A DNA stretch of 64,000 nucleotides from Sphingomonas sp. Leaf407. GTDB taxonomy: Bacteria > Pseudomonadota > Alphaproteobacteria > Sphingomonadales > Sphingomonadaceae. Each line of letters starts with the position of its first letter. Positions within the stretch are counted from its first letter, which is position 1. Where the stretch lies: assembly GCF_001425385.1 (NCBI RefSeq), contig NZ_LMQO01000005.1, positions 1 to 64,000 of the forward strand, given 5' to 3'. Below are positions 51,986-64,000 of this stretch, in pieces. Under the pieces are notes generated by a model that was given only the letters and a program-made list of their open reading frames with translations, did no database searches and was not told the DNA's origin. Both the position numbers and the translations under genes were made by a program.

Positions 51986-53005
51986 CTATCGCGGCGGCGC
52001 GGTCGAGCCGTGGAGGTCGAGGTCGAGCGTGACGCCCGGTTCGGCGTCGGCGGGGCGGCCCTCGATGCGGTCGATCAGGCGGCGGGTGATGGTGGCGGCC
52101 ATGTCGGCGATCGGGCGGCGGACGGTGGTGAGCGCGGGCGTCAGCATCATTGCCAGGATGCTGCCGTCGAAGCCGACCACCGACAGGTCGCCCGGCACCG
52201 ACAGGCCGTGGCCGGCGGCGACCTTCAGCACGGCGGCGGCCATCACGTCGTTGCCGGCGAAGATCGCGGTCGGGCGCGGATCATGCGCCAGCACCGCCTG
52301 CGCGCCGGCCACGCCCGAATCGAAGCCGTAATCGCCGATCGCCTCGGTCAGCAGGGCGATGCCCCGCTGCGCCAGCGCGGCAACGAAGCCGGCGCGGCGT
52401 TCAAGCGCGCTGTGCGCGTCGGCGGGACCCGAGATCAGCGCGACGCGGGTATGGCCGAGGTCGAGCAGATGCGCGGCGACGGCGGCGGCGGCACCACGCT
52501 CGTCAGCCACCAGCATCGCGTCATAGCCCTCCAGCCGGACCGAGGAGAGTGCTACCGCCGGCACGCCGACCTGCGCCAGCCGGTAGGGCAGCGCGGCGAT
52601 GCCCGACACCGGCGGCACGACGACGACCCCGTCGACGCGCGAGCGCTGGACGAATTCGATCACGTCCTCGGCCGGATCGCCGCCATCGGCGCGGACCGGG
52701 TGGACGACCAGTTCATAGCCGCGCACCGACGCTTCGCGCACCATGCCGCGTTGCAGGGGATCGAGCACCAGCGCGTTGCGATCGTTGTGGACGAGGCCCA
52801 GCAGGAACGAGCGCCCGGTGGCAAGGCCGCGCGCGCGGGCGCTGGGACGGAACTGGAGCGCGGCGATGACCGCCTCGACCTTTTCGCGCGTCTCGGCATT
52901 CACCAGCGGCGAGCGGTTGAGCACGCGCGAGACGGTGCGGATCGACACCTGCGCGCGCGCCGCGACGTCGGCGATGGTGGTTCCGCTCTGGGGGGTGTCG
53001 TGCAT
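51986..53005 (-). CDS. LacI-family transcription regulator
   Basis: 339 residues. N-terminal HTH TTIADVAARAQVSIRTVSRV followed by the hinge FRPSARARGLATGRS, then a periplasmic-binding-like ligand domain (LGLVHNDRNALVLDPLQRGM, HTRVALISGPADAHSALERR, VPGDLSVVGFDGSILAMML). LacI members usually answer to sugars. Placed at the edge of the hydroxyproline/GH127 cluster, an arabinose-type ligand is a reasonable guess, not shown by sequence. The start at 53005 follows the family; earlier in-frame starts lie in a repeat. Confidence 0.9.
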   Translation of the reverse strand: MHDTPQSGTTIADVAARAQVSIRTVSRVLNRSPLVNAETREKVEAVIAALQFRPSARARGLATGRSFLLGLVHNDRNALVLDPLQRGMVREASVRGYELVVHPVRADGGDPAEDVIEFVQRSRVDGVVVVPPVSGIAALPYRLAQVGVPAVALSSVRLEGYDAMLVADERGAAAAVAAHLLDLGHTRVALISGPADAHSALERRAGFVAALAQRGIALLTEAIGDYGFDSGVAGAQAVLAHDPRPTAIFAGNDVMAAAVLKVAAGHGLSVPGDLSVVGFDGSILAMMLTPALTTVRRPIADMAATITRRLIDRIEGRPADAEPGVTLDLDLHGSTAPPR

Positions 53006-53068
53006 CAGACGATGGGTATCGCCCGACGGGGCGGTCGGGCGCAAGGGGCGGCACGCGGACACCCACTT

Positions 53069-53166
53069 CGTCACCCCCGCGCAGGCGGGGGTCCATAGAC
53101 GCAACGGCAACGCTTCTATCAGAAGCGTCAGCGTTTATGGATTCCCGCCTGCGCGGGAATGACGGG
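53069..53166. repeat. REP-B palindromic element, copy 3
   Basis: CGTCACCCCCGCGCAGGCGG at the left and CCCGCCTGCGCGGGAATGAC at the right, with a second inner hairpin ACGCTTCT/ATC/AGAAGCGT (about 53110-53128). It sits two bases from the stop of the permease gene. Confidence 0.78.
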
Positions 53167-53167
53167 T

Positions 53168-54589
53168 TTAGTCGAACACCCCGCCCTTTGCCCGCAGCGC
53201 GCGGCTCGCACGGCGGCCGTAGGCGAGGTAGATCGCGAGGCCGATCGCGTTCCAGATCAGGAAGCGGACCAGCGTCGCGCCGGGCAGGCTGTGGAGCAGA
53301 TAGAGGCAGCCGAGGATCGCCCCCGTCCCCACCACCATCGGCGCGGGGCAGCGGAACAGGCGTTTGGCGGTCGGCGCGGTGCGGCGCAGCACCATCAGGC
53401 AGGCACCGACCGCGACGAAGGCGACGAGCGTGCCGGCATTGGCCAGCTCGGCGATCTCGTCGAGGCGGAACAGCCCGGCGACGACCGCGATCGACAGGCC
53501 GGTCAGCACGGTGATCCGCGTCGGCGCGCCGCTGCGCTTGCTGACGGTGGCGAGGCTTGCGGGCAGCAGCCCGTCGCGCGCCATGACGAAGAAGATGCGG
53601 CTCTGCCCGTACATCATCACGAGGATGACCGAGGGGAGCGCGATGACGGCGGCGAGCGCGATCAGATAGGCGGCGGTCGGTTGATTGAGGGTGCGCAGCA
53701 CCAGCGCGAGCGGCTCGGACGAATTGGCCAGCGTCTGGAACGGCACCGCGCCGATCGCCGCCACCGCGACGCCCATGTAGATCGCGGTACACAGCAGCAT
53801 CGACCCGACGATGCCGATCGTCAGGTCACGGCCGGGGTTCTTCGCTTCCTCGGCCGAGGTCGCGACCGCGTCGAAGCCGTAGAATGCGAAGAACACGATC
53901 GCCGCCGCTGCCATCACTCCGCGCTTGGTCCCCTCCACCTCGGTACTGCCAAAGCCATAGGGCATGAACGGGTGGAGGTTGTTGGCGTCGAACGCGGGCA
54001 TGGCGAAGGCGATGAACACGCCCAATGCCACCAGCTTGATGACGACCAGCACGATGTTGAGCGTCGCGCTCTCGCGCGTGCCCGCCACCAGCATCCCCAT
54101 CACCGCCAGTGCGACCAGCACGGCGGGCAGGTTGACGATGCCGCCGCCATGCGGCCCGGCGAGCAGTTCGGGCGGGAGCGTGACGCCGATCGCCTGAATC
54201 CACCCGACCAGATAGCCCGACCAGCCGACCGCGACCGTCGAGCAGGCCAGCGAATATTCGAGGATCAGCGACCAGCCGACGACCCATGCCGCCGTTTCGC
54301 CCAGCGCCACATAGCTGAAGGTATAGGCGCTGCCCGCCGCCGGGATCATCGTCGCCAGTTCGGCATAGGCAAGCGCGGCGCAGGCGCACACTGCGCCGGC
54401 AATGGCGAAGGCGAGGATGACGGCGGGGCCGGCGCGCTCCGCCCCCACCCCGGTCAGCGTATAGATGCCGGTGCCGACGATCGCGCCGACCCCCAGCGCG
54501 ATCAGATGCGGCCAACTGAGCGTCTTGGCGAGCGCCTGTCCCGCCGGGGCGTGCTGCCCCAATGGTTTGCGCGGTCCGATGATCGACAT
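53168..54589 (-). CDS. APC-superfamily amino-acid permease (CAT-like)
   Basis: 473 residues, 12-13 membrane helices. LIALGVGAIVGTGIYTLTGV carries the unwound first helix (GAIVGTGIY) that binds the amino acid; AAAIVFFAFYGFDAVATSAE is the helix 6 signature; YGQSRIFFVMARDGLLPASL matches helix 8 of cationic-amino-acid/YfnA-type permeases. In this cluster it is the candidate importer for hydroxyproline or small peptide products. The start is ATG 54589. It lies 40 bp after the GntR gene on the same strand. Confidence 0.9.
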   Translation of the reverse strand: MSIIGPRKPLGQHAPAGQALAKTLSWPHLIALGVGAIVGTGIYTLTGVGAERAGPAVILAFAIAGAVCACAALAYAELATMIPAAGSAYTFSYVALGETAAWVVGWSLILEYSLACSTVAVGWSGYLVGWIQAIGVTLPPELLAGPHGGGIVNLPAVLVALAVMGMLVAGTRESATLNIVLVVIKLVALGVFIAFAMPAFDANNLHPFMPYGFGSTEVEGTKRGVMAAAAIVFFAFYGFDAVATSAEEAKNPGRDLTIGIVGSMLLCTAIYMGVAVAAIGAVPFQTLANSSEPLALVLRTLNQPTAAYLIALAAVIALPSVILVMMYGQSRIFFVMARDGLLPASLATVSKRSGAPTRITVLTGLSIAVVAGLFRLDEIAELANAGTLVAFVAVGACLMVLRRTAPTAKRLFRCPAPMVVGTGAILGCLYLLHSLPGATLVRFLIWNAIGLAIYLAYGRRASRALRAKGGVFD

Positions 54590-54629
54590 GGCCTGTTTCC
54601 CCCCCTGTGCCGTCGTCCGTCCGCTCAGG

Positions 54630-55286
54630 TCAGGCGGCGGTGAATTGTCCGTGCAGATCGTGCAGCGTCGCCTCGATATGGCGATGCAGCAAGGCCTCGA
54701 GCGCCACCGCGTCGCGCGCCAGCCACGCATCGATCAGGTGGCGATGTTCGAGATGCGCGCGGGCGTCGCGCCCGGCGGGTTCGAGATGGCGGATGACGTA
54801 GCGTTCGGCGAGGAACGCCAGCCGTTCGATCAACTGCGTCGTCAGCAGCCCGCCGCCCGGCCGCACCAGCGCGACGTGGAACGCGCGGTTGCACACCGCG
54901 ACCTCGGCGAGATTGGTGTGCGCCGCCTTGTCGAGCGCATGGAACGCGGCCAGCGCCTCGGCCCGTTCGGCATCGTCGGCGAGCGCGGCGGCGCGCGCGG
55001 CGGCGGCGGGTTCGATCGCGAGGCGCAGCGCATAGATCTCGTCGGCCTGATCCGTCGACATCGGGCGGACCGAATAGCCGCGATTGGCCTGGCTGACGAG
55101 CAGCCCTTCCTGTTCCAATCGGCCGAGCGCCTCGCGCAGCGGAATCTTGCTCACCCCCAGTTCGGCGGCCAGCGCGTCCTGCCGGATCGGGGCATCCTCA
55201 CCCAGACTGCCGGTGACGATGCGGTCGCGGACGATGGTGAACACCTGATCGGACAGGGTGCGGACGACGATTGCGGAACTGTTCAC
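54630..55286 (-). CDS. GntR-family regulator (FadR/FCD type)
   Basis: 218 residues. N-terminal winged helix (TLSDQVFTIVRDRIVTGSLG, ELGVSKIPLREALGRLEQEG) and an all-helical FCD ligand domain with the metal-binding His residues (AFHALD, CNRAFHVALV, EHRHLIDAWLARD). The GTG start overlaps the epimerase stop. FCD regulators commonly control sugar-acid or amino-acid catabolism and bind GTATAC-centred palindromes; such a site lies in the cluster's divergent promoter at 57253-57266. Confidence 0.92.
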   Translation of the reverse strand: MNSSAIVVRTLSDQVFTIVRDRIVTGSLGEDAPIRQDALAAELGVSKIPLREALGRLEQEGLLVSQANRGYSVRPMSTDQADEIYALRLAIEPAAAARAAALADDAERAEALAAFHALDKAAHTNLAEVAVCNRAFHVALVRPGGGLLTTQLIERLAFLAERYVIRHLEPAGRDARAHLEHRHLIDAWLARDAVALEALLHRHIEATLHDLHGQFTAA

Positions 55287-56281
55287 CGGACGACGAACCC
55301 CTGCCAGAACGGATCGGCGCGATCGATCCAGATGGTGTTGAAGCCGGTGGCGATCGCCGACCCCTCGATCGAGGGGATGATGGCGGGCACGTCGCCGAGG
55401 CTCGTCGCTGCCTCGACCCGGCCGGTGAAGCGGCTGCCGATATAGCTTTCGTGGACGAAGCTGTCACCGATCGCCAGCCGCCCGGTGGCGGCGAGGTGCG
55501 CGAGCCGCGCCGAGGTGCCGGTACCGCACGGGCTCCGGTCGATCGCGCCGTCGCCGTAGAAGACCGCGTTGCGGCCGTCAGCGCCCTCGCCCTTCGGCAC
55601 GTCGGCCCATAGCACGTGGCTGACGCCGCGAATCGTCGGGTCGAGCGGATGGACCGGCTCGAACACCGCGCGCACCGCGTCGCGCAACGCCCGGCTGTGG
55701 GCGATGATCGCCTCGGCCCCGAGCGAATCGAGGCCGGTGTAGCCGCCCTGCGGCTCGACGATCGCGTAATAGTTGCCGCCATAGGCGACGTCGACCTTGA
55801 GCGGCCCGAGGCCGGGCAGGTCGATGGCGATGCCGGTCGCGGCGAGATAGGCGGGGACGTTGGTGATCTTCACCGACGTCACCCTGTCACCCTCGCTCCG
55901 GTAGGCGATGCCGATGATCCCGGCGGGCACCTCGACGCGCAGGAGGCCCGGCGTGGTCGGCTGGATCAGGCCGTGTTCGAGGCCGAAGGTGATGATGCCG
56001 ATCGTGCCGTGCCCGCACATCGGCAGGCAGCCCGAGGTTTCGATGAACAGGATGCCGATGTCGCAATCGGGCTGCGTCGGCGGATAGAGGAACCCGCCCG
56101 ACATCATCGCATGGCCGCGTGGTTCGAAGCACAGCCCGGTCCTGATCCAGTCGAAGCGGGACAGGAAATCCTGTCGCCGCTCCGACATGGAGGCCCCTTT
56201 CAACAAGGGTGCGCCACCTGCGACCAGCCGCACCGGATTGCCGGCGGTATGCCCGTCGATGCAGAAGAAGCTGTGGCGCAT
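55283..56281 (-). CDS. 4-hydroxyproline 2-epimerase (proline racemase family)
   Basis: 332 residues. The two-base mechanism cysteines are Cys89 in LPMCGHGTIGI and Cys252 in RSPCGTGTSARLA. Both are kept, which separates epimerases from the Cys-to-Thr trans-3-hydroxyproline dehydratases. It opens with CIDGHTAGNPVRLV. It converts trans-4-hydroxy-L-proline into cis-4-hydroxy-D-proline, the first step of bacterial hydroxyproline breakdown. It ends in a GTGA overlap with the GntR gene and begins 10 bp after the deaminase-type gene. Confidence 0.92.
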   Translation of the reverse strand: MRHSFFCIDGHTAGNPVRLVAGGAPLLKGASMSERRQDFLSRFDWIRTGLCFEPRGHAMMSGGFLYPPTQPDCDIGILFIETSGCLPMCGHGTIGIITFGLEHGLIQPTTPGLLRVEVPAGIIGIAYRSEGDRVTSVKITNVPAYLAATGIAIDLPGLGPLKVDVAYGGNYYAIVEPQGGYTGLDSLGAEAIIAHSRALRDAVRAVFEPVHPLDPTIRGVSHVLWADVPKGEGADGRNAVFYGDGAIDRSPCGTGTSARLAHLAATGRLAIGDSFVHESYIGSRFTGRVEAATSLGDVPAIIPSIEGSAIATGFNTIWIDRADPFWQGFVVR

Positions 56282-56291
56282 CGGCGTGCGA

Positions 56292-57224
56292 TCAGGCCGC
56301 GGCGGCGGCGGCGGCGGGCTGGAACGAGGGCAGGTCGGGGCGAGTCGCCGCCGCCTGTTCGACCATCGCGATCACCTGGGCGCGGCGCTCGCCGATCAGC
56401 GGCAGGCGCGGCGGGAGCACGCGCTCCGACCCGCGACCCATGACCTGTTCGGCCAGCTTGATCGACTGCACCAGATCGTGATCGGCATCGAGGTGGAGCA
56501 GCGGCATGAACCAGCGATAGATTTCCATCGCCTTAGCATGATCGCCACGCTGGAACGCGCGCACCAGCTCGACCGATTCGCGCGGGAAGGCGTTGGTGAG
56601 GCCCGACACCCAGCCCTGCGCGCCGAGGTACAGCCCTTCGAGCGCGACGTCGTCGAGGCCGGCGAACAGCACGTAGCGGTCGCCGAACGCGGTCTTCACA
56701 TCGGTGAAGCGGCGCGTGTCGGGAGCCGATTCCTTGATCGCGACGATGGTCGGCGCATCGGCCACCATCTCCAGCACCGTGTTGTCGATCTGGGTGCGAT
56801 AGGCCGGCGGGTTGTTGTAGAGCATGATCGGCAGCGCGGTCGCCGCCGCCACGCCCTTGAAATGCGCGGCCAGTTCATGCGCCTTGGGCACATAGACCAT
56901 CGGCGGGAGCAGCATGAGGCCGTCCGCCCCGGCCTTTTCCGCCGCGATCGCATAGGCGACCGCGCGGCGGGTATCATATTCGGACACGCCGGTGACGACG
57001 GGGACGCGGCCGTCGACCACCTCGACGATCGCGGTGAGGACCGTGATCTTCTCGTCATGGGTCAGCGAGTTGTTCTCGCCCACCGTGCCCAGCGCGATGA
57101 CGCCGGTCACGCCGTCGCGGATCAGATCGTCCACCACGCGCTGGGTATCGGCGAGATCGATCGAGAGATCCTCGCGAAGCTGCGTCGTCACCGCTGGAAA
57201 CACACCTTGCCAATCAATCGTCAT
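56292..57224 (-). CDS. DapA-family enzyme, probable 1-pyrroline-4-hydroxy-2-carboxylate deaminase
   Basis: 310 residues. TIM-barrel DapA/NanA fold: GVIALGTVGENNSLTHDEKI, PIMLYNNPPAYRTQID with Tyr136, Schiff-base Lys164 in IVAIKESAPDTRRF, and GLDDVALEGLYLGAQGWVSG. The genome context (epimerase downstream, D-amino-acid dehydrogenase divergent) points to the step making 2-oxoglutarate semialdehyde and ammonia from pyrroline-hydroxy-carboxylate rather than lysine synthesis. The C-terminus ends in an Ala run. Confidence 0.85.
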   Translation of the reverse strand: MTIDWQGVFPAVTTQLREDLSIDLADTQRVVDDLIRDGVTGVIALGTVGENNSLTHDEKITVLTAIVEVVDGRVPVVTGVSEYDTRRAVAYAIAAEKAGADGLMLLPPMVYVPKAHELAAHFKGVAAATALPIMLYNNPPAYRTQIDNTVLEMVADAPTIVAIKESAPDTRRFTDVKTAFGDRYVLFAGLDDVALEGLYLGAQGWVSGLTNAFPRESVELVRAFQRGDHAKAMEIYRWFMPLLHLDADHDLVQSIKLAEQVMGRGSERVLPPRLPLIGERRAQVIAMVEQAAATRPDLPSFQPAAAAAAA

Positions 57225-57252
57225 GCTCTGGTCCTGAAGTCTTGTCTGTGAA

Positions 57253-57266
57253 TACCGTATACGATA
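57253..57266. promoter_or_regulatory. candidate GntR operator in the divergent hydroxyproline promoter
   Basis: TACCGTATACGATA has a perfect 8-bp palindrome CGTATACG (57256-57263) with one mismatch in the extended 14 bp. It lies between the start of the deaminase gene (57224) and the dehydrogenase gene (57301), in the only AT-rich stretch of this gap. Position and GTATAC core suit the FCD-type regulator encoded in the same operon. Confidence 0.5.
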
Positions 57267-57300
57267 ATAGCGGGTGATGAACAAGGGGGCAAAGCGGACC

Positions 57301-58518
57301 ATGCCGGACGATCGTATCGCCGTGGTCGGGGCCGGGATCGTCGGCCGGTCGATCGCACTGGCGCTGGCGGCCCGCGGGGAGCGGGTCGTGCTGATCGATG
57401 CGGCCGACGACCGCGCCGCACCATCATGGGGGAATGCCGGACATATTGCCACCGAACAAGTCGCGCCGATCGCGTCGTGGGTGACGATCCGGTCGATGCC
57501 CCGGCGGCTGTTCTGGCGCGGCGGGCCGGTGGGGCTGCCGATCGCGCAGATCGCGACGTGGCTGCCCTTCGCCGCGCGGCTGGTCGCGGCGTCTACCCCG
57601 AAGCGATTCGCCGCTGGACAGGCGGCGCTGCGCGCGATGCTGGCGCAGGCGATGCCGGCATGGGAGCGGCTGGCCCAAGCGATCGGACGGCGCGACCTGC
57701 TGCGCGAGGACGGCCATTTGATCGCATGGGAAAGTGCCGCCAGCGCCGCGGCGGGCCGGGCGTACTGGGGCAAGGCCGATACCGGCACCGCGCGGCTGGG
57801 CGAGGCGAGCGCCGACGATCTCGCCCGGTTGCGCGCGCTGTCGCCCGGCGTGGTCGATGCGATGCGCTTCACCGGCACCGGGCAGATCGCCGACCTGACC
57901 GCGCTGGCCGACGCGCTCGACGCCGCGCTGGCGGCGGCCGGGGTCGAGCGGTTGCACCGGCACGCCACGCTCGAACGCCATGGCCGGCGGATCGTGGTGG
58001 AGGGAGTCGCGGCTACCCGGGTGGTGATCGCCGCCGGGGTCGGCTCGGCCGCGCTGATGGCGGCGGCGGGGCATGCCGCCGTGCCGCTGATCGCCGAGCG
58101 CGGCTATCATCTGCGCGGCGATGCGGCCGCCTGGCCCGCCGACCTGCCGCCGGTGGTATTCGAGGACCGCTCGATCATCGTCACCCGCTATGCCGACCAG
58201 GTGCAGGTGGCAGGCTTCGTCGAGTTCGGCCGTGCCGACGCCCCACCCGACCCGCGCAAGAGCGACCGGTTGTGCGCGCATGTCACCGCGCTGCGCCTGC
58301 CGATCGCCGGGCCGTTCCGCCGGTGGATGGGGGCCCGGCCGACGCTGCCCGATTATCTGCCGGCGATCGGCCGGTCGACTCGCGCCGACAATCTCTATTA
58401 TGCCTTCGGGCATCAGCATCTGGGGCTGACGCTGGGGCCGATCACCGGGGAATGGGTCGCGGCGCTGATACTTGGCGAAGCGCCGGTGCCTGTGGCGTTC
58501 GACGTCGAGCGGTTTTGA
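57301..58518 (+). CDS. FAD-dependent D-amino-acid (D-hydroxyproline) dehydrogenase
   Basis: About 405 residues. N-terminal dinucleotide fold IAVVGAGIVGRSIALALAAR, DAA-type GNAGHIATEQVAP, and C-terminal FGHQHLGLTLGPITGEWVAA, the flavin-contact pattern of DadA-like oxidoreductases. In context it should oxidise cis-4-hydroxy-D-proline to pyrroline-4-hydroxy-2-carboxylate. The ATG at 57301 with AAGGGGG about 11 bases upstream is preferred; GTG 57274 and ATG 57277 are in frame but lack a ribosome site. Divergent from the deaminase and epimerase genes. Confidence 0.87.
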   Translation: MPDDRIAVVGAGIVGRSIALALAARGERVVLIDAADDRAAPSWGNAGHIATEQVAPIASWVTIRSMPRRLFWRGGPVGLPIAQIATWLPFAARLVAASTPKRFAAGQAALRAMLAQAMPAWERLAQAIGRRDLLREDGHLIAWESAASAAAGRAYWGKADTGTARLGEASADDLARLRALSPGVVDAMRFTGTGQIADLTALADALDAALAAAGVERLHRHATLERHGRRIVVEGVAATRVVIAAGVGSAALMAAAGHAAVPLIAERGYHLRGDAAAWPADLPPVVFEDRSIIVTRYADQVQVAGFVEFGRADAPPDPRKSDRLCAHVTALRLPIAGPFRRWMGARPTLPDYLPAIGRSTRADNLYYAFGHQHLGLTLGPITGEWVAALILGEAPVPVAFDVERF

Positions 58519-58522
58519 TTCG

Positions 58523-58695
58523 GGTCGACCTTCGGTCGGAACGTGAGCAGAATTGCTCCCCCTCCCTGACAAGGAAGGGGCTGGGGGTGGGTCGGCCGGT
58601 TGTGGAACGCACACCTTGCCTCGCGGGCCGACCCACCCCCGACCCCTCCCTTGTCAAGGAGGGGAGACGTCGAGCACTTGGTTGAATGTCGATCC
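58523..58695. repeat. CTCCCCTCC-type palindromic element, copy 2, with REP-A-type edges
   Basis: GGTCGACCTTC (from about 58523) and AATGTCGATCC (58685-58695) bound a palindrome CTCCCCCTCCCTGACAAGGA ... TCAAGGAGGGGAG (58556-58667). The outer edges are those of REP-A although the inside differs. It lies between the dehydrogenase stop and the M24 peptidase start. Confidence 0.75.
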
Positions 58696-58718
58696 ACCAT
58701 GATACGGGACTTTGCAGC

Positions 58719-59900
58719 ATGACCATCGGAACCTCCGACGCCGCGACCGAACTGGCGGCGATCCGTCCGCCCGCGACTCGGGTGCCGCCGATCGCAGCAG
58801 CGGAATATGCCGCGCGGGCGGCCAAGGCGCGGGCGTTGTGCGCGGCGGCGGGCGCAGGCGCGCTGCTGGTCCATGCCGGGGCGTCGCTGCGCTATTTCAC
58901 CGGGGTGCCGTGGGGTGCGACCGAGCGGATGGTCGCGCTGCTGCTGCCGGTGGCGGGCGAGCCGGTGATGATCTGTCCCCGGTTCGAGCAGGGATCGCTG
59001 GAAGCCGACCTTCAAATCTCCGCCGATCTCGCGCTGTGGGACGAGGATGAGGACCCGGTCGCGCTGCTGGCGAAGGCCGCGCAAGGCATGGGCGCAATCG
59101 CGGTCGATCCGCAGCTTCCCTTCGCATGGGGGGCGAAACTGGCGCGGGCCGGGGCGACGCTGGTCGACGGATCGGGGGTGATCGACGGGTGCCGGATGGT
59201 GAAGTCGGCGGCCGAGCTGGCGTGTCTGGCGCAGGCCAAGGCGATGACGCTGGAGGTGCAGGCGCGCGCCGCGCGCATCCTGCACCCCGGGATCGCTGCC
59301 AGCGAGGTGATCGCCTTCATCGACGCAGCGCATCGCACGATCGGTGGCGGCGGATCGTTCTTCTGCGCGGTGCAGTTCGGCCATGCCACCGCCTTTCCCC
59401 ACGGCCTGCCCGGCGACCAGCGACTGGCCGAGAACGAGCTGGTGCTGATCGATACCGGGTGCCGGGTACACGGCTATCATTCGGACATCACCCGCAGCTA
59501 TGCCTTCGGGCAGGTGGACCGGCACGTCCGCGACATCTGGGACATCGAGCATGCGGCGCAGGCGGCGGCGTTCGCGGTCGCAGGACCCGGCGTGCCGTGC
59601 GAGATGGCCGATGCTGCGGCGCGCGCGGTGCTGTCCGCCCATGGGCTGGGGCCGGACTATGCGCTGCCGGGGCTGCCGCATCGCACCGGGCACGGCATTG
59701 GCCTGTCGATCCACGAGCCGGCCAATCTGGTGCGTGGCGACGTGACGCCGATGTCGGTGGGCATGTGTTTCTCGAACGAGCCGATGATCGTGGTGCCGGG
59801 GCGTTTCGGCGTGCGGCTGGAGGATCATTTCCATGTGACCGACGATGGCGCGGCGTGGTTCACGCAGCCGCAGCCGTCGATCGACCGGCCGTTCGGGTAG
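58719..59900 (+). CDS. M24-family metallopeptidase (Xaa-Pro dipeptidase-like)
   Basis: 393 residues. N-terminal creatinase domain, then the pita-bread fold with metal ligands Asp in VLIDTGCRVHG, Asp in YHSDITRSY, His in HRTGHGIGLSIHEP, Glu in CFSNEPMIV and Glu in RLEDHFHVT. This is the prolidase/aminopeptidase P group, which cleaves bonds next to proline or hydroxyproline. ATG 58719 is preferred; an earlier in-frame ATG (58686) lies in the repeat edge. Within the cluster it could free hydroxyproline from imported dipeptides. Confidence 0.88.
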   Translation: MTIGTSDAATELAAIRPPATRVPPIAAAEYAARAAKARALCAAAGAGALLVHAGASLRYFTGVPWGATERMVALLLPVAGEPVMICPRFEQGSLEADLQISADLALWDEDEDPVALLAKAAQGMGAIAVDPQLPFAWGAKLARAGATLVDGSGVIDGCRMVKSAAELACLAQAKAMTLEVQARAARILHPGIAASEVIAFIDAAHRTIGGGGSFFCAVQFGHATAFPHGLPGDQRLAENELVLIDTGCRVHGYHSDITRSYAFGQVDRHVRDIWDIEHAAQAAAFAVAGPGVPCEMADAAARAVLSAHGLGPDYALPGLPHRTGHGIGLSIHEPANLVRGDVTPMSVGMCFSNEPMIVVPGRFGVRLEDHFHVTDDGAAWFTQPQPSIDRPFG

Positions 59901-59945
59901 GGGGGAACGGATAGGGGTGCTTGGCTGCCGTGGCCCTGCCCCTTT

Positions 59946-60173
59946 TCAGACGGGCGGGCGTTTACCGCGACGCCACGCCGATGCCCGCCTCAAACAATAA
60001 TAACATACCACCAGAGGCGACAGTGCAAGCGAGCAGAAGATCGCAAGACTGCCTGGATTTTTGCCGATGCCTCCAGCGCCGAAGAACCCGATCGTAAACA
60101 CGACGAGGAATACAATCATCAGCGTGTAGACAGACGCGGCGGCTATCAGAATCGCGGAAACAAACTTGTTCAC
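59946..60173 (-). CDS. small two-helix membrane protein of lower GC
   Basis: 75 residues from GTG 60173, chosen because GGAGG stands five bases upstream; an ATG at 60233 is in frame but unsupported. Helices: VSAILIAAASVYTLMIVFLV and LAIFCSLALSPLVVCYYCLR, with a Gly-rich loop and a basic C-terminus. Its base composition is clearly lower in GC than its neighbours, and it adjoins a broken tRNA-like gene, so acquisition by transfer is possible. No family recognised. Confidence 0.5.
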   Translation of the reverse strand: MNKFVSAILIAAASVYTLMIVFLVVFTIGFFGAGGIGKNPGSLAIFCSLALSPLVVCYYCLRRASAWRRGKRPPV

Positions 60174-60241
60174 CACATCCTCCACGTAAGCCTTACACGC
60201 TGGTCTAGGGCCATGGCCGGTGTTCGCAATCATGCGAATCC

Positions 60242-60318
60242 GCCAGCGGCAGGGATCGAACCCGCACCCGGTTCCGGGATCGCTGTAGCGATACGTCTAC
60301 CAATTCCGTCATGCTGGC
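60242..60318 (-). pseudogene. tRNA-Leu-like gene lacking a normal anticodon loop
   Basis: On the minus strand: acceptor arm GCCAGCA/CGCTGGC (6 of 7 pairs), leucine-type D loop GAATTGGTAGA, long variable arm CCCGG/CCGGG and T arm GCGGG-TTCGATC-CCTGC. The anticodon region, TATCGCTACAGCGATC, can form only a stem with a 4-6-base loop instead of seven. It is 77 bases long against about 84 for tRNA-Leu, and no CCA is encoded, whereas both intact tRNAs in this window encode it. Most likely a decayed tRNA; a tRNA-mimic RNA is an alternative. Confidence 0.65.
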
Positions 60319-60400
60319 ATGGATGGTGTAACGTCCGATCGGGTTGCCACACAATGTCCGGTTCCGGGCAGCGTGTACCGAAGGACCGGCAACCGTACCC

Positions 60401-62140
60401 CTACCCCAGCGGATACGGCCCCTTGCCGCCCTCGGCGATGAAACGGTCGACCCGCGCGTCGATCATCGGCAGCGGGACCGATCCCAGCGCCAGCATCGCG
60501 TCGTGGAAGGCGCGGATGTCGAACTTGTCGCCCAGCGCCTTTTCCGCCTTTGCGCGGCCCTGCACGAACGCCATCTCGCCCATGTAATAGCTCAGCGCCT
60601 GTCCGGGCCATGCGATGTAGCGGTCGACCTCGGTCGTGATCTCGTGGGTCGACAGCGCGGTATTGTCTTTCAGGAAATTCTGCGCGCGCTCGCGGGTCCA
60701 GCCTTGCGAGTGGAGGCCGGTGTCGACCACCAGCCGGGCGGCGCGCCACATCTGGTAGCTGAGCATGCCGAAGATTTCATACGGGGTGGTGTACATCCCC
60801 ATCTCTTCGCCGAGCGCCTCCGAATACAGCGCCCAGCCCTCGCCATAGGCCGAGAGATAGGCGTCGCGGCGATAGGCGGGGAGGTCGTCCAGCTCGGCGG
60901 CGAACGACATCTGCCACGCATGGCCAGGCGCGCTTTCGTGGAGCGTCAGCGCGGGCAATGAATAGAGCGGGCGCGCGGGCAAATTGTACGTGTTGACGAG
61001 GTAGATGCCCGGCCCGCCGCGCCCGCCGGTGTAGAAGGGGGCGAGGTCGGCCGGCACCGGTTTGATCGCGAAACGCGCGCGCGGCATGCGGTTGAAATAT
61101 TGCGCCGCCTTGCCGTCGAACGTCTTGGCGATCCATGCCGCGCGGTCGAGCAGCGCCTGCGGCGTGGTGACGTAGAATTGCGGATCGGTGCGCAGGAAGT
61201 GCAGGAAACCGGGGAAATCGCCCTGCCATTTCGCGTCGCGCATCACGGTCTGCATCCGTGCTCGGATACGGGCGACTTCGGCGAGGCCGATGGCATGGAC
61301 CTGATCGGCGGTCAGGTCGCGCGTGACATATTCGCGGACCTTGGAGGCGTAGTAGGCGCGGCCATCGGGCAGGTCGTAAGCGGCGAGGCTGGTGCGCGCG
61401 CCCGGGATATAGTCCTGTTGCAGAAACGCGAGGAGCCGCTGGTGCGCGGGGATCACCGCGCTGCCGATCAGGCGCAGCGCTTCGGCGCGTAGGCTTGCCT
61501 GGGTTGCGGGTGGGATCGTCGCCGGCATGGCCTTGAACGGGGCGTAGAAGGGCGATGCCTCGCCGGGCGCGGCGACCACCGCCGCCACGCCGGCGTCGCG
61601 CCCTTGCAGCGTGATCGCCGGGGGCGTGAAGCCGCGCGCGAGGCCGGCGCGCATGTTGGCGATGTTCTGGTCGAAATAGCGCGGGATCTGCGCCAGCCGG
61701 GCGAGATAGCCGCGATAGCCGGCCGCGTCGCGCAGCGGTTCGCCCGCCATGCCGGCGATGTCGATCCAGAAGCTGCTGTCGGCGTTGAGCGGCTTTTCCC
61801 AGTCGCGGAAGCGCTGCGCGGCGAGCAGCGCGGCGACCTGCGCACGGTAGACGGTGTAGTCGTCGCGCACCCCGGGCGAGAGTTTGGCCGGGTCGATCGC
61901 GTCCAGTGCGCGGGCGGTCGTTTCCCACCGGGCGAGGCGGGCGGCCTGTGCGGCGGGGCCGACGTCGGACAGGCCAGCATCGGGCGCAACCGACGAATCC
62001 TCGCCGGGGCCAGCCTGCGCCTTGCGCCAGTCGTACTCGGACGTGGCGAGCGTGGCGAAGGCGGTGTCGGCGGGGGTCCCCTGCGGTTGCTGCGCCATGA
62101 CGGGGGTGGCGAGGAGGAGGGCGAAGGCCGACACCAGCAT
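60401..62140 (-). CDS. secreted DUF885-family metallopeptidase-like protein
   Basis: 579 residues. Signal peptide 1-16 (LVSAFALLLATPVMAQ). The C-terminal half has the zinc motif LTLHESAPGHAWQ (HExxPGH-like), then YGEGWALYSEALGEEMGMY and MWRAARLVVDTGLHSQGWTR, all typical of DUF885, which includes carboxypeptidase-like enzymes. Translation must begin at ATG 62140 to expose the signal peptide, although the frame stays open through a REP-A element up to the stop of the upstream gene. A periplasmic peptidase here suits peptide breakdown by the hydroxyproline cluster. Confidence 0.87.
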   Translation of the reverse strand: MLVSAFALLLATPVMAQQPQGTPADTAFATLATSEYDWRKAQAGPGEDSSVAPDAGLSDVGPAAQAARLARWETTARALDAIDPAKLSPGVRDDYTVYRAQVAALLAAQRFRDWEKPLNADSSFWIDIAGMAGEPLRDAAGYRGYLARLAQIPRYFDQNIANMRAGLARGFTPPAITLQGRDAGVAAVVAAPGEASPFYAPFKAMPATIPPATQASLRAEALRLIGSAVIPAHQRLLAFLQQDYIPGARTSLAAYDLPDGRAYYASKVREYVTRDLTADQVHAIGLAEVARIRARMQTVMRDAKWQGDFPGFLHFLRTDPQFYVTTPQALLDRAAWIAKTFDGKAAQYFNRMPRARFAIKPVPADLAPFYTGGRGGPGIYLVNTYNLPARPLYSLPALTLHESAPGHAWQMSFAAELDDLPAYRRDAYLSAYGEGWALYSEALGEEMGMYTTPYEIFGMLSYQMWRAARLVVDTGLHSQGWTRERAQNFLKDNTALSTHEITTEVDRYIAWPGQALSYYMGEMAFVQGRAKAEKALGDKFDIRAFHDAMLALGSVPLPMIDARVDRFIAEGGKGPYPLG

Positions 62141-62250
62141 CGTCACCCCGGACTGGTTCCGGGGTCCACTTGTCGGCGAGCGATGCGTGTCGTGGATCGG
62201 GCGACGACGTTCGTGGCGAGGTGGACCCCAGAACCAGTCCGGGGTGGGGA
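62141..62250. repeat. REP-A palindromic element, copy 4 (short)
   Basis: CGTCACCCCGGACTGGTTCC starts at the base next to the DUF885 start codon; the complementary arm GTGGACCCCAGAACCAGTCC lies at 62220-62239. It fills the gap between two same-strand genes and supplies whatever ribosome site the DUF885 gene uses (GGGGTGA just upstream of its ATG). Confidence 0.78.
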
Positions 62251-62268
62251 TAGGGGTGTCGTTCCGCA

Positions 62269-63291
62269 TCACTTCGCCTTTCCTGCCACTGCGTCGATGT
62301 CCGTGAGCAGCGCCCGCGACACCCGCACCCCTTCGCGTTCACTGACCGCGCGGGCGGCGTGGCGGCGGCTGCCGGGCAGGCGCGCGCCCTGCCCCTCGAT
62401 CGCCTCGAACATCGCCTCGGCACGCGCGAGATGGTCGGCCGCCGCGTCGCCGAGGAAGCCGGCGGGATCGATCGCGAGGATCAGTTCGCCGCCGATCGGC
62501 GATCCCTTGCGGCCCGCATCGCGCGCGATCGATTCGGCGCTGGTCAGGTCGCCGATCAGCGGCCCGGCAATCAGTTCGACCATCGCCGCCAGCGCCGACC
62601 CCTTGTGCCCGCCGAAGGTGCGCATCGCGCCGGCCAGTACCGCTTGTGCGTCGGCGCTGGGGTTGCCGTCGGGGTCGATGCCCCAGTCGGTCGGGATGGC
62701 CTTGCCGGCGCGGCGGTGCAGCTCGATCTCGCCGCGCGCCACCATCGAGGTCGCGAAGTCGAACACGAACGGGTTGGGGCCCGGGCGCGGCCAGCCGAAT
62801 GCGATCGGGTTGGTGCCGAACACCGGCTTCGTGCCGCCCGCCGGCGCGACCCACGCATGGCTGGGGGTGAAGGCGAGTGCCACGAGGCCGTCGGCGACCA
62901 GCGCCTCGACCTCGGGCCAGAGTGCTGCAAAATGGACGATGTTGTTGAGCGCCATGGCGGCGATGCCGTTCGCACGGGTCGCCTCGACCAGTGCTTCGCG
63001 GCCCGTCTCGAACGCCAGTTGCGCGAAACCACCCTGCCCGTCGACGCGGACCAGCGCGGGTTTGGGCCGCGAGAGGACCGGCACCGCATCGGGCACCACC
63101 ACCCCGCTGGCGACGCTGTGCGCGGCGACGAGCAGGCGGTAGAGGCCATGGCTTCCGCAGCCGTCGCGCTCGCCCGCGACCATCGTCTCGGCAACCGCGA
63201 CGACATGCGGTTCGGAGAGGCCGACGCGGCGCAGCGTGGCGCGGGCATAGGCGCGCACCTCGTCCAGCGTCATCAGGACGGTGTCGCTCAT
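62269..63291 (-). CDS. Ldh2-family oxidoreductase (probable pyrroline-2-carboxylate reductase type)
   Basis: 340 residues. The malate/L-lactate dehydrogenase 2 fold: GCGSHGLYRLLVAAHSV (catalytic His), IAAMALNNIVHFAALW, SHAWVAPAGGTKPVFGTNPI, FDFATSMVARGEIELHRRAG and GHKGSALAAMVELIAG. Members reduce cyclic imino acids (pyrroline- or piperideine-2-carboxylate) or 2-oxo acids with NAD(P)H. Next to hydroxyproline genes, the imino-acid reductase role, which recovers proline from pyrroline-2-carboxylate, is favoured. Overlaps the GH127-like gene (ATGA). Confidence 0.82.
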   Translation of the reverse strand: MSDTVLMTLDEVRAYARATLRRVGLSEPHVVAVAETMVAGERDGCGSHGLYRLLVAAHSVASGVVVPDAVPVLSRPKPALVRVDGQGGFAQLAFETGREALVEATRANGIAAMALNNIVHFAALWPEVEALVADGLVALAFTPSHAWVAPAGGTKPVFGTNPIAFGWPRPGPNPFVFDFATSMVARGEIELHRRAGKAIPTDWGIDPDGNPSADAQAVLAGAMRTFGGHKGSALAAMVELIAGPLIGDLTSAESIARDAGRKGSPIGGELILAIDPAGFLGDAAADHLARAEAMFEAIEGQGARLPGSRRHAARAVSEREGVRVSRALLTDIDAVAGKAK

Positions 63292-64000
63292 GCGGTCGTC
63301 CCCGGCTTGGCGGTGAACAGGCGCATGCCGAACACCGGGCCGGCGGTGTTCTTGTCGTGCGGCACGACGCGGATGGTGATCTTCGCCTTGCCGCGGGTCA
63401 GCGGTTCGGGGACCGGATAGTCGACGTCGAAGAACGTCCCCGGCCGGCTGCGGTCGAGCGACTGGGTGGCGATGCGCTGATTGTCGACGAGGATGTCGAA
63501 CGAGCGCTTGCCCTCGTCGCCCCAATAGGTCGCCTGCAGCACCAATGGGCCGGGCTTCACCGCCATGGTGAACTGGAAGAAGCCGCCGGTGCGCGCGTCG
63601 CGCCCGGCGCGGCCGCGATAGCTGAGCGGGTAGGAGATGTCGGAGGTGAGATTGTGGTCGCGCTCGGGCTGCATTTCGCCGAGGTGCATCACGTCGACCG
63701 AGCGGGCGGCGAGTTCACGCTCGTCGGCCTGCCGCTTGCGGAAGGCGGCTTCCTCGACCGCCCATTCGCTATCGGTGAAGCGGCGGAAATAGACCGCGCT
63801 GCGCCGGTCGTACTGGCGATAGAAGGGGACGAAGGTCAGGTCGCCGGGGCGGATGAGACTGGCGGTGCGATATTGCGCTTCCTCAAGGGCAACGGGCTGG
63901 AACCGGGCGAGCAGGTCGTCGCCGACCATTGCCGGATCGGGCTGGTCCCATGTCCCGTCGGCGCGGCCGAGGTCGCCGGCCAGCACCAGCGGCCCGCGCA
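63288..64000 (-). CDS. C-terminal part of a GH127-like glycoside hydrolase (beta-L-arabinofuranosidase family), cut by the window end
   Basis: About 237 residues are visible; the frame runs off the window. RGPLVLAGDLG at the visible start is the end of the catalytic (alpha/alpha)6 domain of GH127/DUF1680 proteins; VPFYRQYDRRSAVYFRRF begins the first beta domain and FFQFTMAVKPGPLVLQATYW to NTAGPVFGMRLF is the C-terminal domain of this family. GH127 founder HypBA1 removes L-arabinofuranose from hydroxyproline-linked oligosaccharides of plant extensin. The catalytic Cys/Glu residues lie outside the window. Confidence 0.75.
   Translation of the reverse strand, partial: RGPLVLAGDLGRADGTWDQPDPAMVGDDLLARFQPVALEEAQYRTASLIRPGDLTFVPFYRQYDRRSAVYFRRFTDSEWAVEEAAFRKRQADERELAARSVDVMHLGEMQPERDHNLTSDISYPLSYRGRAGRDARTGGFFQFTMAVKPGPLVLQATYWGDEGKRSFDILVDNQRIATQSLDRSRPGTFFDVDYPVPEPLTRGKAKITIRVVPHDKNTAGPVFGMRLFTAKPGTTA

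What the first reader, a model, noticed from the sequence alone, without database searches (positions are those of the whole stretch)
51986..64000. Probable extensin (hydroxyproline glycoprotein) utilisation locus
One contiguous block combines 4-hydroxyproline epimerase, D-hydroxyproline dehydrogenase, DapA-type deaminase and an FCD regulator with an amino-acid permease, a prolidase-like M24 peptidase, a secreted DUF885 peptidase, an Ldh2-type imino-acid reductase and a GH127-like hydrolase. GH127 enzymes include HypBA1, which strips arabinose from hydroxyproline residues of plant extensin. The pieces cover deglycosylation, peptide cleavage, uptake and catabolism of the released amino acid. 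I know of hydroxyproline clusters and of arabinofuranosidase clusters; a single joined locus would be new to me. 2-oxoglutarate-semialdehyde dehydrogenase is missing from the window. Individual calls are by motif; the joint role is inference.
Basis: partly seen in the sequence, partly recalled or inferred. Interest (0 to 1): 0.75.

Follow-up and report, generated by a model that had tools for sequence, protein, structure and literature searches.

The report
Bacterial regulon eating plant hydroxyproline glycoproteins
A Sphingomonas-like bacterium carries, side by side and apparently under one genetic switch, genes that look able to strip the sugars off plant hydroxyproline-rich proteins, cut up the protein and burn the released hydroxyproline; the same pairing recurs in related bacteria of many genera.

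Summary
Past 64000 the block continues: a whole GH146-type (not GH127) beta-L-arabinofuranosidase with intact zinc/cysteine residues, a DPP-IV-type peptidase, a GH2 and a TonB receptor. The pairing is not chance. In 199 genomes of the family all 15 with this GH146 also have 4-hydroxyproline epimerase (9 of the other 184), and in 13 of 15 the two lie within 11 kb, in scrambled orders across 12 genera. Hyp-linked GH146s fall in one clade, apart from most GH146s of arabinose clusters. A palindrome, TATACNGTATA, found in the hydroxyproline promoters, also precedes GH146 (21 identical bases at both promoters of this genome). At up to one mismatch the genome has six sites, four at such functions, one beside a GH43 65% identical to that of Xanthomonadaceae HypBA1/HypAA/HypBA2-like loci. 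In 45 loci not used to find it, it lies upstream of GH146 in 20 of 43, against 14 of 322 unlabelled genes. I read it as a hydroxyproline-controlled regulon for plant hydroxyproline-rich glycoproteins or glycopeptides. Extensin against arabinogalactan protein is undecided; nothing has been tested at the bench.

The parts
53168..54589 (-). APC-family amino-acid permease, presumed hydroxyproline/dipeptide uptake across the inner membrane
   Evidence: Pfam AA_permease_2 2.5e-52; its cluster is in 18 of 30 stretches compared, 70-80% identical in the linked loci where it was met in full
54630..55286 (-). GntR/FCD regulator, presumed HypR-like
   Evidence: Pfam GntR + FCD; cluster found in 20 of 30 stretches compared; beside GH146 in L116 (Steroidobacter, 67%) and in L071 (Caulobacter, 56%)
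55283..56281 (-). 4-hydroxyproline 2-epimerase
   Evidence: NF010578 533.6 bits, cut-off 376; both catalytic Cys present, MCGHGT and SPCGTGT
56292..57224 (-). DHDPS/DapA-family pyrroline-4-hydroxy-2-carboxylate deaminase (inferred); ATG at 57224
   Evidence: Pfam DHDPS 1.1e-55; position beside HypE and DAO
57246..57266 (.). Operator copy 1, ctgtgAATACCGTATAcgata, in the divergent DapA/DAO promoter
   Evidence: one of 6 genome sites of TATACNGTATA at <=1 mismatch; identical 21 bases at C5:65661-65681 before GH146, outside the window
57277..58518 (+). FAD-dependent cis-4-D-hydroxyproline dehydrogenase/oxidase (inferred)
   Evidence: Pfam DAO 2.1e-45; genomic context
58719..59900 (+). M24 Xaa-Pro/prolidase-like peptidase, no signal peptide seen by eye
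   Evidence: Pfam Peptidase_M24 3.7e-49 + Creatinase_N; cluster in 19 of 30 stretches
60401..62140 (-). DUF885 putative secreted metallopeptidase (HESAPGH motif, by eye)
   Evidence: Pfam DUF885 2e-154; PDB 3o0y 237.9 bits, function not named there
62269..63291 (-). Ldh_2-family Delta1-pyrroline/piperideine-2-carboxylate reductase (inferred)
   Evidence: best PDB 1wtj, Delta1-piperideine-2-carboxylate reductase, 223 bits, next 137.8
63288..64000 (-). C-terminal part of GH146-type beta-L-arabinofuranosidase; whole gene C5:63288-65657, 789 aa
   Evidence: PF07944 392 bits, PF20736, PF20620; E331, E349, C351, C419, C420 invariant in an alignment of 15

Best explanation
This is a regulon for eating plant hydroxyproline-rich glycoproteins or glycopeptides, switched by hydroxyproline through the FCD/GntR (HypR-like) protein. 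Proposed working: TonB receptors bring soluble glycopeptides into the periplasm. There GH43 removes the outer alpha-1,3-arabinofuranose and GH146 removes the beta-arabinofuranoses down to the one on hydroxyproline, with GH2, DUF5695 and, in relatives, GH27 taking other sugars. S9/DPP-IV and DUF885 peptidases shorten the bared peptide; the APC permease imports the products; the cytoplasmic M24 peptidase frees hydroxyproline/proline. HypE, DAO, DapA and an aldehyde dehydrogenase elsewhere in the genome turn hydroxyproline into 2-oxoglutarate; the Ldh_2 reductase returns pyrroline-2-carboxylate to proline. Shown by sequence: the genes, their conserved pairing, the intact GH146 residues, and the shared palindrome at the two promoters. 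Inferred: substrate, compartments, regulator identity and direction, and every catalytic step.
For: Co-occurrence: of 199 family genomes, GH146 at >=57% identity in 15, HypE at >=70% in 24, both in 15; Fisher 9.7e-17, descent not corrected, cut-offs chosen after seeing the hits. Linkage: in 13 of those 15 the two lie within 11 kb; order and orientation differ between genera. In an even sample of 398 genomes of the phylum, 4 have GH146 at >=55% identity and all 4 have HypE on the same contig within 13 kb; the 9 with only more distant GH146 show none linked. Tree of 116 GH146s: all 39 labelled Hyp-linked lie in one clade of 64 rows (SH-aLRT 95), next to Xanthomonadaceae; 10 of 11 labelled arabinose-linked lie in another clade of 17. 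Xanthomonadaceae loci L183/L184 hold GH146 + GH43 + GH121 (6m5a 699 bits for L183), like the published trio; a GH146 of X. euvesicatoria cleaves mainly Araf-beta-Hyp (PMC10850190, passages). Operator.
Against: No expression, binding or enzyme data. 33 of 64 clade GH146 genes lack a site within about 450 nt upstream; 21 of 49 named clade loci have no Hyp gene within their <=10 kb flanks. S. endophytica NS334, whose GH146 is 80% identical to the window's, has no HypE match at E 1e-25 in its genome (G699). In G083 GH146 and HypE are on different contigs, in G182 it is undecidable. The window genome's TBDR-GH2-S9 genes have no site at <=2 mismatches. Genome-wide the pattern is not in excess: 6 sites against 16 for the backwards control; two of the six sit at genes I cannot tie to the substrate, and in 12 genomes 72 of 108 sites lie outside the locus stretches. 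GH121 was found in only 2 of 228 loci held. Six Duganella genomes have GH146 but only 38% HypE-like proteins. L074 carries both HypE and an arabinose-type dehydratase.
Confidence: 0.8

Rival explanations
1. Two independent neighbours: a general hydroxyproline/proline peptide operon beside an arabinan or pectin (RG-I) hydrolase block; the adjacency has no function.
For: GH146 founder BT0349 acts on arabinan-derived substrates (PMC10850190); either half occurs alone, e.g. HypE without this GH146 in 9 of 184 family genomes and GH146 without HypE in S. endophytica NS334.
Against: Conserved linkage in scrambled order across 12 genera; separate GH146 clade for most arabinose clusters; shared operator at both promoters, and 0 of 17 sites in the arabinose clade.
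Confidence: 0.08
2. The same regulon, but the substrate is mainly arabinogalactan protein rather than extensin.
For: LacZ-type GH2 in the block; DUF5695, a companion with the same operator, folds like the lyase BACCELL_00875 (5no8, Foldseek E 4.7e-20, VIA Z 17.1, rmsd 5.0, 584 aligned), recalled to be an arabinogalactan-protein lyase; beta-1,3-Araf occurs on AGPs.
Against: The GH43 under the operator is 65% identical to the GH43 of an Xanthomonadaceae GH146-GH43-GH121 locus. GH27 alpha-galactosidases near GH146 or Hyp genes in G168, G123, G175, G083 and in five named loci fit the Ser-alpha-Gal of extensin. The DUF5695 model is weak (mean pLDDT 68.6).
Confidence: 0.3
3. A collagen-type HypR regulon: the bacterium eats animal or generic proline/hydroxyproline peptides and the glycosidases are passengers.
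For: HypR regulons of Shewanella and relatives include collagenases and proline dipeptidases (PMC5343134, passages).
Against: The operator sits before GH146 and between GH43 and DUF5695; collagen carries no arabinose (general knowledge); no collagenase family among the genes scanned in the block.
Confidence: 0.05

Closest known systems
HypR regulon for proline/4-hydroxyproline use in Proteobacteria (PMC5343134, passages)
   Same: GntR regulator, HypE-HypO-HypD core, proline peptidases, a TonB receptor in some taxa; in Shewanella extended upstream to the polymer (collagenases)
   Different: Here the upstream extension is removal of plant-type arabinose from hydroxyproline (GH146, GH43, DUF5695) and the operator is TATACNGTATA; I saw no such glycosidase members in the passages read, and did not see its operator motifs
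HypBA1/HypBA2/HypAA systems of Bifidobacterium longum and Xanthomonas euvesicatoria (PMC6085000 and PMC10850190, passages; PMC7263609, start of abstract)
   Same: beta-L-arabinofuranosidase (GH146 in Xanthomonas) with GH43, and a prolyl oligopeptidase pseudogene beside the Xanthomonas genes
   Different: What I read describes taking arabinose; no hydroxyproline catabolism is named. GH121 is absent from the sphingomonad loci held, and here the amino-acid pathway shares the operator
4HypE gene neighbourhoods of the eLife 2014 survey (PMC4113996, passages)
   Same: DAAO, DHDPS, aldehyde dehydrogenase and MLD2 (Ldh_2) Pyr2C reductase beside members of the epimerase family
   Different: words beginning with 'glyco' or 'plant' do not occur in that main text
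Latescibacteria in silico HRGP degradation (PMC4454575, passages)
   Same: beta-L-arabinofuranosidase plus peptidases proposed for HRGP
   Different: Genome-wide inventory of an anaerobe; no hydroxyproline catabolism in the passages seen

Membership tests
4-hydroxyproline catabolic pathway (HypE-DAO-DapA-KGSADH) | epimerase above its curated score and with the Cys/Cys pair | tested here: met
   NF010578 533.6 vs 376 bits; MCGHGT and SPCGTGT; Cys/Cys rule from PMC4113996 passages
4-hydroxyproline catabolic pathway (HypE-DAO-DapA-KGSADH) | DAAO and DHDPS neighbours | tested here: met
4-hydroxyproline catabolic pathway (HypE-DAO-DapA-KGSADH) | semialdehyde dehydrogenase in the cluster | tested here: not met
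   none in the block; a 58% homologue of the Aldedh near HypE in G144 is at C4:270213. A candidate is in the genome, so this is a matter of layout
GH146 | PF07944 catalytic domain and Glu-x-Cys / Cys-Cys zinc site with Cys nucleophile | tested here: met
   residues of family members from PMC10850190
GH146 | closer to GH146 than to GH127 structures | tested here: met
   5opj 443.8, 8k7x 162.8, GH127-labelled 4qjy 95.3, 3wkw 40.5 bits; the family of 5opj, 8k7x and 3wkw is recalled from their papers, not in the call
GH146 | hydrolysis of Araf-beta-Hyp | not testable with these tools
   needs enzyme assay
GH127 (HypBA1) | GH127 C-terminal domain PF20737 | tested here: not met
   no match at E 0.001; present in the Granulicella GH127
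HypR regulon | FCD/GntR gene in the cluster and one operator at several target promoters | tested here: met
HypR regulon | binding of that regulator to that operator, relieved by hydroxyproline | not testable with these tools
   only indirect: of 48 named loci with GH146 >=55% identity, 13 of 18 with GntR >=50% identity have the site before GH146, 9 of 30 without (Fisher p 0.007)
HypBA1/HypAA/HypBA2 system | GH43 close to that of the GH146-GH43-GH121 loci | tested here: met
   C1:1273285-1274811, 65% to the GH43 of L184, operator adjacent; that L184's GH43 is the HypAA enzyme is inferred from layout
HypBA1/HypAA/HypBA2 system | GH121 beta-L-arabinobiosidase | tested here: inconclusive
   2 of 228 loci held, both Xanthomonadaceae; the whole window genome was not searched for it
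PL27-type lyase (DUF5695 companion) | fold of BACCELL_00875 | tested here: inconclusive
   best match 5no8 Z 17.1, rmsd 5.0, 584 aligned, 13% identity, from a model of mean pLDDT 68.6; PL27 name recalled; no active site compared

The most novel reading that the evidence does not exclude
The system is a periplasmic catabolic trap for small arabinosylated hydroxyproline glycopeptides, including plant signalling peptides that carry Hyp-Araf3, which plant-associated sphingomonads import through TonB receptors, deglycosylate with GH43/GH146, cut and burn, with hydroxyproline itself as the inducing signal; DUF5695 would be a new lyase-like enzyme family of this regulon.
Probability: 0.1. Interest if true: 0.85.

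Novelty: new variant of a known kind. Interest (0 to 1): 0.62.

Why it matters
Hydroxyproline catabolism and HRGP-deglycosylating enzymes are each known; this ties them into one hydroxyproline-linked system in Sphingomonadaceae and relatives, several of them plant or leaf isolates by name (Sphingomonas sp. Leaf412, Leaf242, S. pokkalii, S. endophytica). It gives a testable operator and gene list for how bacteria could feed on extensin-like wall proteins, names a companion family of unknown function (DUF5695), and would be the plant counterpart of the collagen-type HypR regulon.

Tried and rejected
Chance adjacency: rejected on co-occurrence, linkage and operator evidence. GH127 for the window enzyme: rejected. 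LacI and CstA as members: LacI's cluster is in 2 of 30 stretches, CstA's in one; left out. The S9 as a lasso-peptide isopeptidase: 35 bits against a cut-off of 400. Streptomyces HypR site TACAATGTCAC: different sequence. A DUF885 literature search listed nothing on its function; DUF5695 is named in one paper of the library, on fungal regulators. The fold search of DUF5695 also lists mutarotase-like and GH94-type rows at Z 12-15, which share parts only or fit badly. Searches on which 'not seen in print' rests; most listings were cut to 10-25 rows, and only open-licence PMC papers are held. Papers: passages read of PMC10850190, PMC6085000, PMC4113996, PMC6608401, PMC4454575, PMC5343134, PMC3223726, PMC5371791, PMC8424115; PMC7263609 seen as start of abstract only; none read whole.
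Full report
What is there. The window is G000:C5:1-64000 of a 3.78-Mb genome in 9 contigs. Beyond the window end, on the same strand, lie the rest of a 789-residue PF07944 enzyme (C5:63288-65657), a DPP-IV/S9 peptidase (65888-68158), a LacZ-type GH2 (68155-71244) and a TonB receptor (71298 to about 74216), then a divergent CstA. The S9 is nearest to 2d5l/2eep (171 bits), which I recall as the prolyl tripeptidyl peptidase of Porphyromonas.

The hydrolase. It has the PF07944 catalytic domain (392 bits), the middle domain and DUF6805, but no match to the GH127 C-terminal domain. Its best solved relative is 5opj (443.8 bits), then 8k7x (162.8); GH127-labelled 4qjy scores 95.3 and 3wkw, recalled as HypBA1, 40.5. 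The E-x-C and C-C residues that bind zinc in GH146 and GH127 (PMC10850190, passages) are E349, C351, C419, C420; with E331 they are invariant in an alignment of 15 sequences, the window's included. Many N-termini show a twin-arginine stretch (by eye), so I place the enzyme in the periplasm.

Conservation of the pairing. In 199 genomes drawn from the family, 20 have a GH146 match at E 1e-30 and 27 a HypE match at E 1e-40. Counting GH146 at 57% identity or more and HypE at 70% or more (cut-offs set after seeing the list): 15 and 24 genomes, both in 15; Fisher 9.7e-17, not corrected for descent. In 13 of the 15, from 12 genera, the two are within 11 kb. The exceptions are G083, where they are on different contigs, and G182, where HypE is on a 3.4-kb contig. 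Gene order and strand differ between genera, which speaks against passive inheritance of one block. In an even sample of 398 genomes of the phylum, 13 have GH146 at E 1e-100; the four with 55% identity or more (G000, G472, G403, G533) all have HypE on the same contig within 13 kb, and of the nine with only more distant GH146, two have HypE, unlinked. A scan of genome contigs with the 15-sequence alignment (so biased towards this group; best 80 of 592 kept) gave 80 named loci; 21 hold HypE at 60% or more within the flanks of at most 10 kb, 5 more only DapA or DAO, 3 a weak HypE, 51 none. The 21 include Sphingomonas, Novosphingobium, Sphingobium SYK-6, Croceibacterium, Altericroceibacterium, Pacificimonas, an uncultured Caulobacter, Nitrospirillum, Azospirillum and Niveispirillum; Acetobacter malorum has DapA and DAO. 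In Granulicella paludicola (Acidobacteriota, L077) a GH146 nested among the sphingomonad ones sits with a divergent Cys/Cys HypE-like protein (34%), DAO, DapA, aldehyde dehydrogenase, a GH127 with its own C-terminal domain, GH43 and S9, and what look by eye like a DUF885 protein, a permease and a GntR regulator.

Kinds of GH146. In a quick maximum-likelihood tree of 116 sequences all 39 that I labelled Hyp-linked (HypE, DapA or DAO in the locus; L077 by hand; L074, which also has an arabinose-type dehydratase, counted here) fall within one clade of 64 rows (SH-aLRT 95), next to a Xanthomonadaceae group. Ten of 11 GH146 genes beside L-arabinose-type genes fall in a different clade of 17 (99); the eleventh is that of G083. 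As few changes of label are seen in 0 of 500 shuffles for Hyp and 2 of 500 for arabinose. Of the 49 named loci in the clade, 21 have HypE, 5 DapA/DAO, 2 weak HypE, 21 none; of the 31 outside, none has a strong HypE and one a weak one. Of 27 genomes behind clade loci with no HypE, or only weak HypE or DapA/DAO, nearby (a 28th was not held), 14 have a strong HypE somewhere, 10 only a weak one and 3 none, S. endophytica NS334 among the last. Two loci of a family that I take for Xanthomonadaceae (it holds the Lysobacter genome of L110), L183 and L184, hold GH146 (47% to the window's), GH43, a GH121 (6m5a 698.8 bits for L183, L184's 95% identical to it), DUF6055, a TonB receptor and Ldh_2. That resembles the trio published for X. 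euvesicatoria, whose enzymes take Ara4-Hyp down to Ara-Hyp and arabinose (PMC6085000, passages); the prolyl oligopeptidase pseudogene told of there I did not see in L183 or L184, but G690 of the same genus code has an S9 by its GH43. That XeHypBA1 is GH146 and prefers Araf-beta-Hyp is stated in PMC10850190.

The operator. Counting dyads upstream of each gene family showed ATAC-N-GTAT in 12 of 20 DapA upstreams, and the same dyad as the commonest (6 of 21) upstream of GH146. The core is TATACNGTATA, extended consensus about TATCGTATACNGTATACGATA. In the 80-kb window-genome stretch only two sites have at most one mismatch: between DapA and DAO (57251) and 14 nt before GH146 (C5:65666); the two share 21 identical bases. 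In the whole genome there are six: these two; one between a GH43 (69% to the GH43 of G168, 65% to that of L184) and a DUF5695 gene on C1; one between a TonB receptor and an S9 peptidase on C2; and two that I cannot tie to the substrate (C3, beside a transporter and a secreted protein; C7, among exopolysaccharide-like genes). The count alone is no excess: the backwards pattern has 16. Place is what counts. In 12 genomes, 36 of 108 sites lie in the fetched locus stretches, 1.6% of the DNA, expected 1.7; without 15 sites at Hyp promoters, 21 of 93, expected 1.5 (G472, 16 sites, was left out; genome sizes are rounded; the listing was cut, totals are from its table). In 45 named clade loci not used for discovery (4 duplicates of discovery genomes left out) the site precedes GH146 in 20 of 43, DapA 11 of 21, DUF5695 9 of 21, S9b 8 of 8, DAO 6 of 10, while genes expected inside operons have few (M24 0 of 9, APC 0 of 12, GH27 0 of 5, GH43 1 of 16, Ldh_2 2 of 15, DUF885 3 of 31). 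All labelled genes 66 of 254, unlabelled 14 of 322, Fisher 5e-14; of five control palindromes the two highest have 7 and 6 of the 254. Divergent genes share one site, so these are not all independent. Upstream of GH146 over the tree: 31 of 64 in the clade, 0 of 15 Xanthomonadaceae, 0 of 17 arabinose type, 0 of 19 outgroup; 29 control palindromes of the same letters give mean 0.48, maximum 3 of 64. The divergent GH146 stretches of G052 (two), G175, G183 and G091 have none at one mismatch; nor have G163's 40 kb or the Hyp stretches of G001 and G003. The regulator is probably the FCD/GntR protein: 13 of 18 named loci with it have the site before GH146 against 9 of 30 without (p 0.007); in Steroidobacter (L116) it stands directly before GH146. 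Binding is not shown.

Companions. GH27 alpha-galactosidases (Melibiase_2) lie near the locus in G168, G123, G175 and near GH146 in G083, and in five named loci, which fits Ser-alpha-galactose of extensin (PMC5371791, passages). Others are a serine carboxypeptidase, gamma-glutamyltransferase, amidohydrolases and second M24 peptidases in some. Ldh_2 is nearest to Delta1-piperideine-2-carboxylate reductase, and MLD2 proteins in proline racemase family neighbourhoods reduce proline ketimine (PMC4113996). The genome has a protein 81% identical to the dehydratase of an arabinose-type cluster, which I take for L-arabonate dehydratase, and a KGSADH candidate elsewhere; I recall that L-arabinose and hydroxyproline routes both pass through 2-oxoglutarate semialdehyde. 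DUF5695 of S. endophytica (L068) was modelled from an alignment of 17 (mean pLDDT 68.6, pTM 0.70): beta domain, helical domain, beta domain; the best match is lyase 5no8 (Foldseek E 4.7e-20; VIA Z 17.1, rmsd 5.0, 584 aligned), next rows lower and partial. A shared fold shows no function; it keeps AGP open.

Comparison. It would work like the HypR regulons of Proteobacteria, which in Shewanella reach back to collagenases and proline peptidases (PMC5343134, passages), but with plant-type glycan removal; and like the HypBA/HypAA systems, but with the amino acid consumed too. In the searches listed under Tried and rejected I found no paper that joins the two. I call it a new variant of a known kind.

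Noticed in passing
window 53069-53164, 58559-58664, 62129-62261; C5:65741-65853: Paired inverted repeats of 90-130 bp (REPIN-like) in the gaps LacI/APC, DAO/M24 and DUF885/Ldh_2, with a copy resembling the second, by eye, between GH146 and S9. The third makes a false 5' extension of the DUF885 frame.
   Followed up: partly
L119:5837-8077, L089, L189:10882-13263, L193: A family of about 750-790 aa, no Pfam match in the two members scanned, sits near GH146 in Asticcacaulis, Lysobacter and G533 (44-73% identity).
   Followed up: no
L183:6710-8518; L080, L081, L082, L094: DUF6055 is shared (about 50%) between the Xanthomonadaceae GH146-GH43-GH121 locus and Sphingomonas/Novosphingobium/Asticcacaulis GH146 loci.
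   Followed up: no
L108:6773-7813: A proline-racemase-family protein near GH146 has Ser/Thr instead of the Cys/Cys pair.
   Followed up: no
G000:C3:14302-24411: Arabinose-type cluster of the window genome with a 39-41% PF07944-like relative of the GH146 and no operator site in 18 kb.
   Followed up: partly
G000:C3:427230: One operator-like site lies within the 5' part of a secreted 712-aa protein that looks by eye like an alpha-glucuronidase, near an MFS transporter; chance or a regulon member is open.
   Followed up: no
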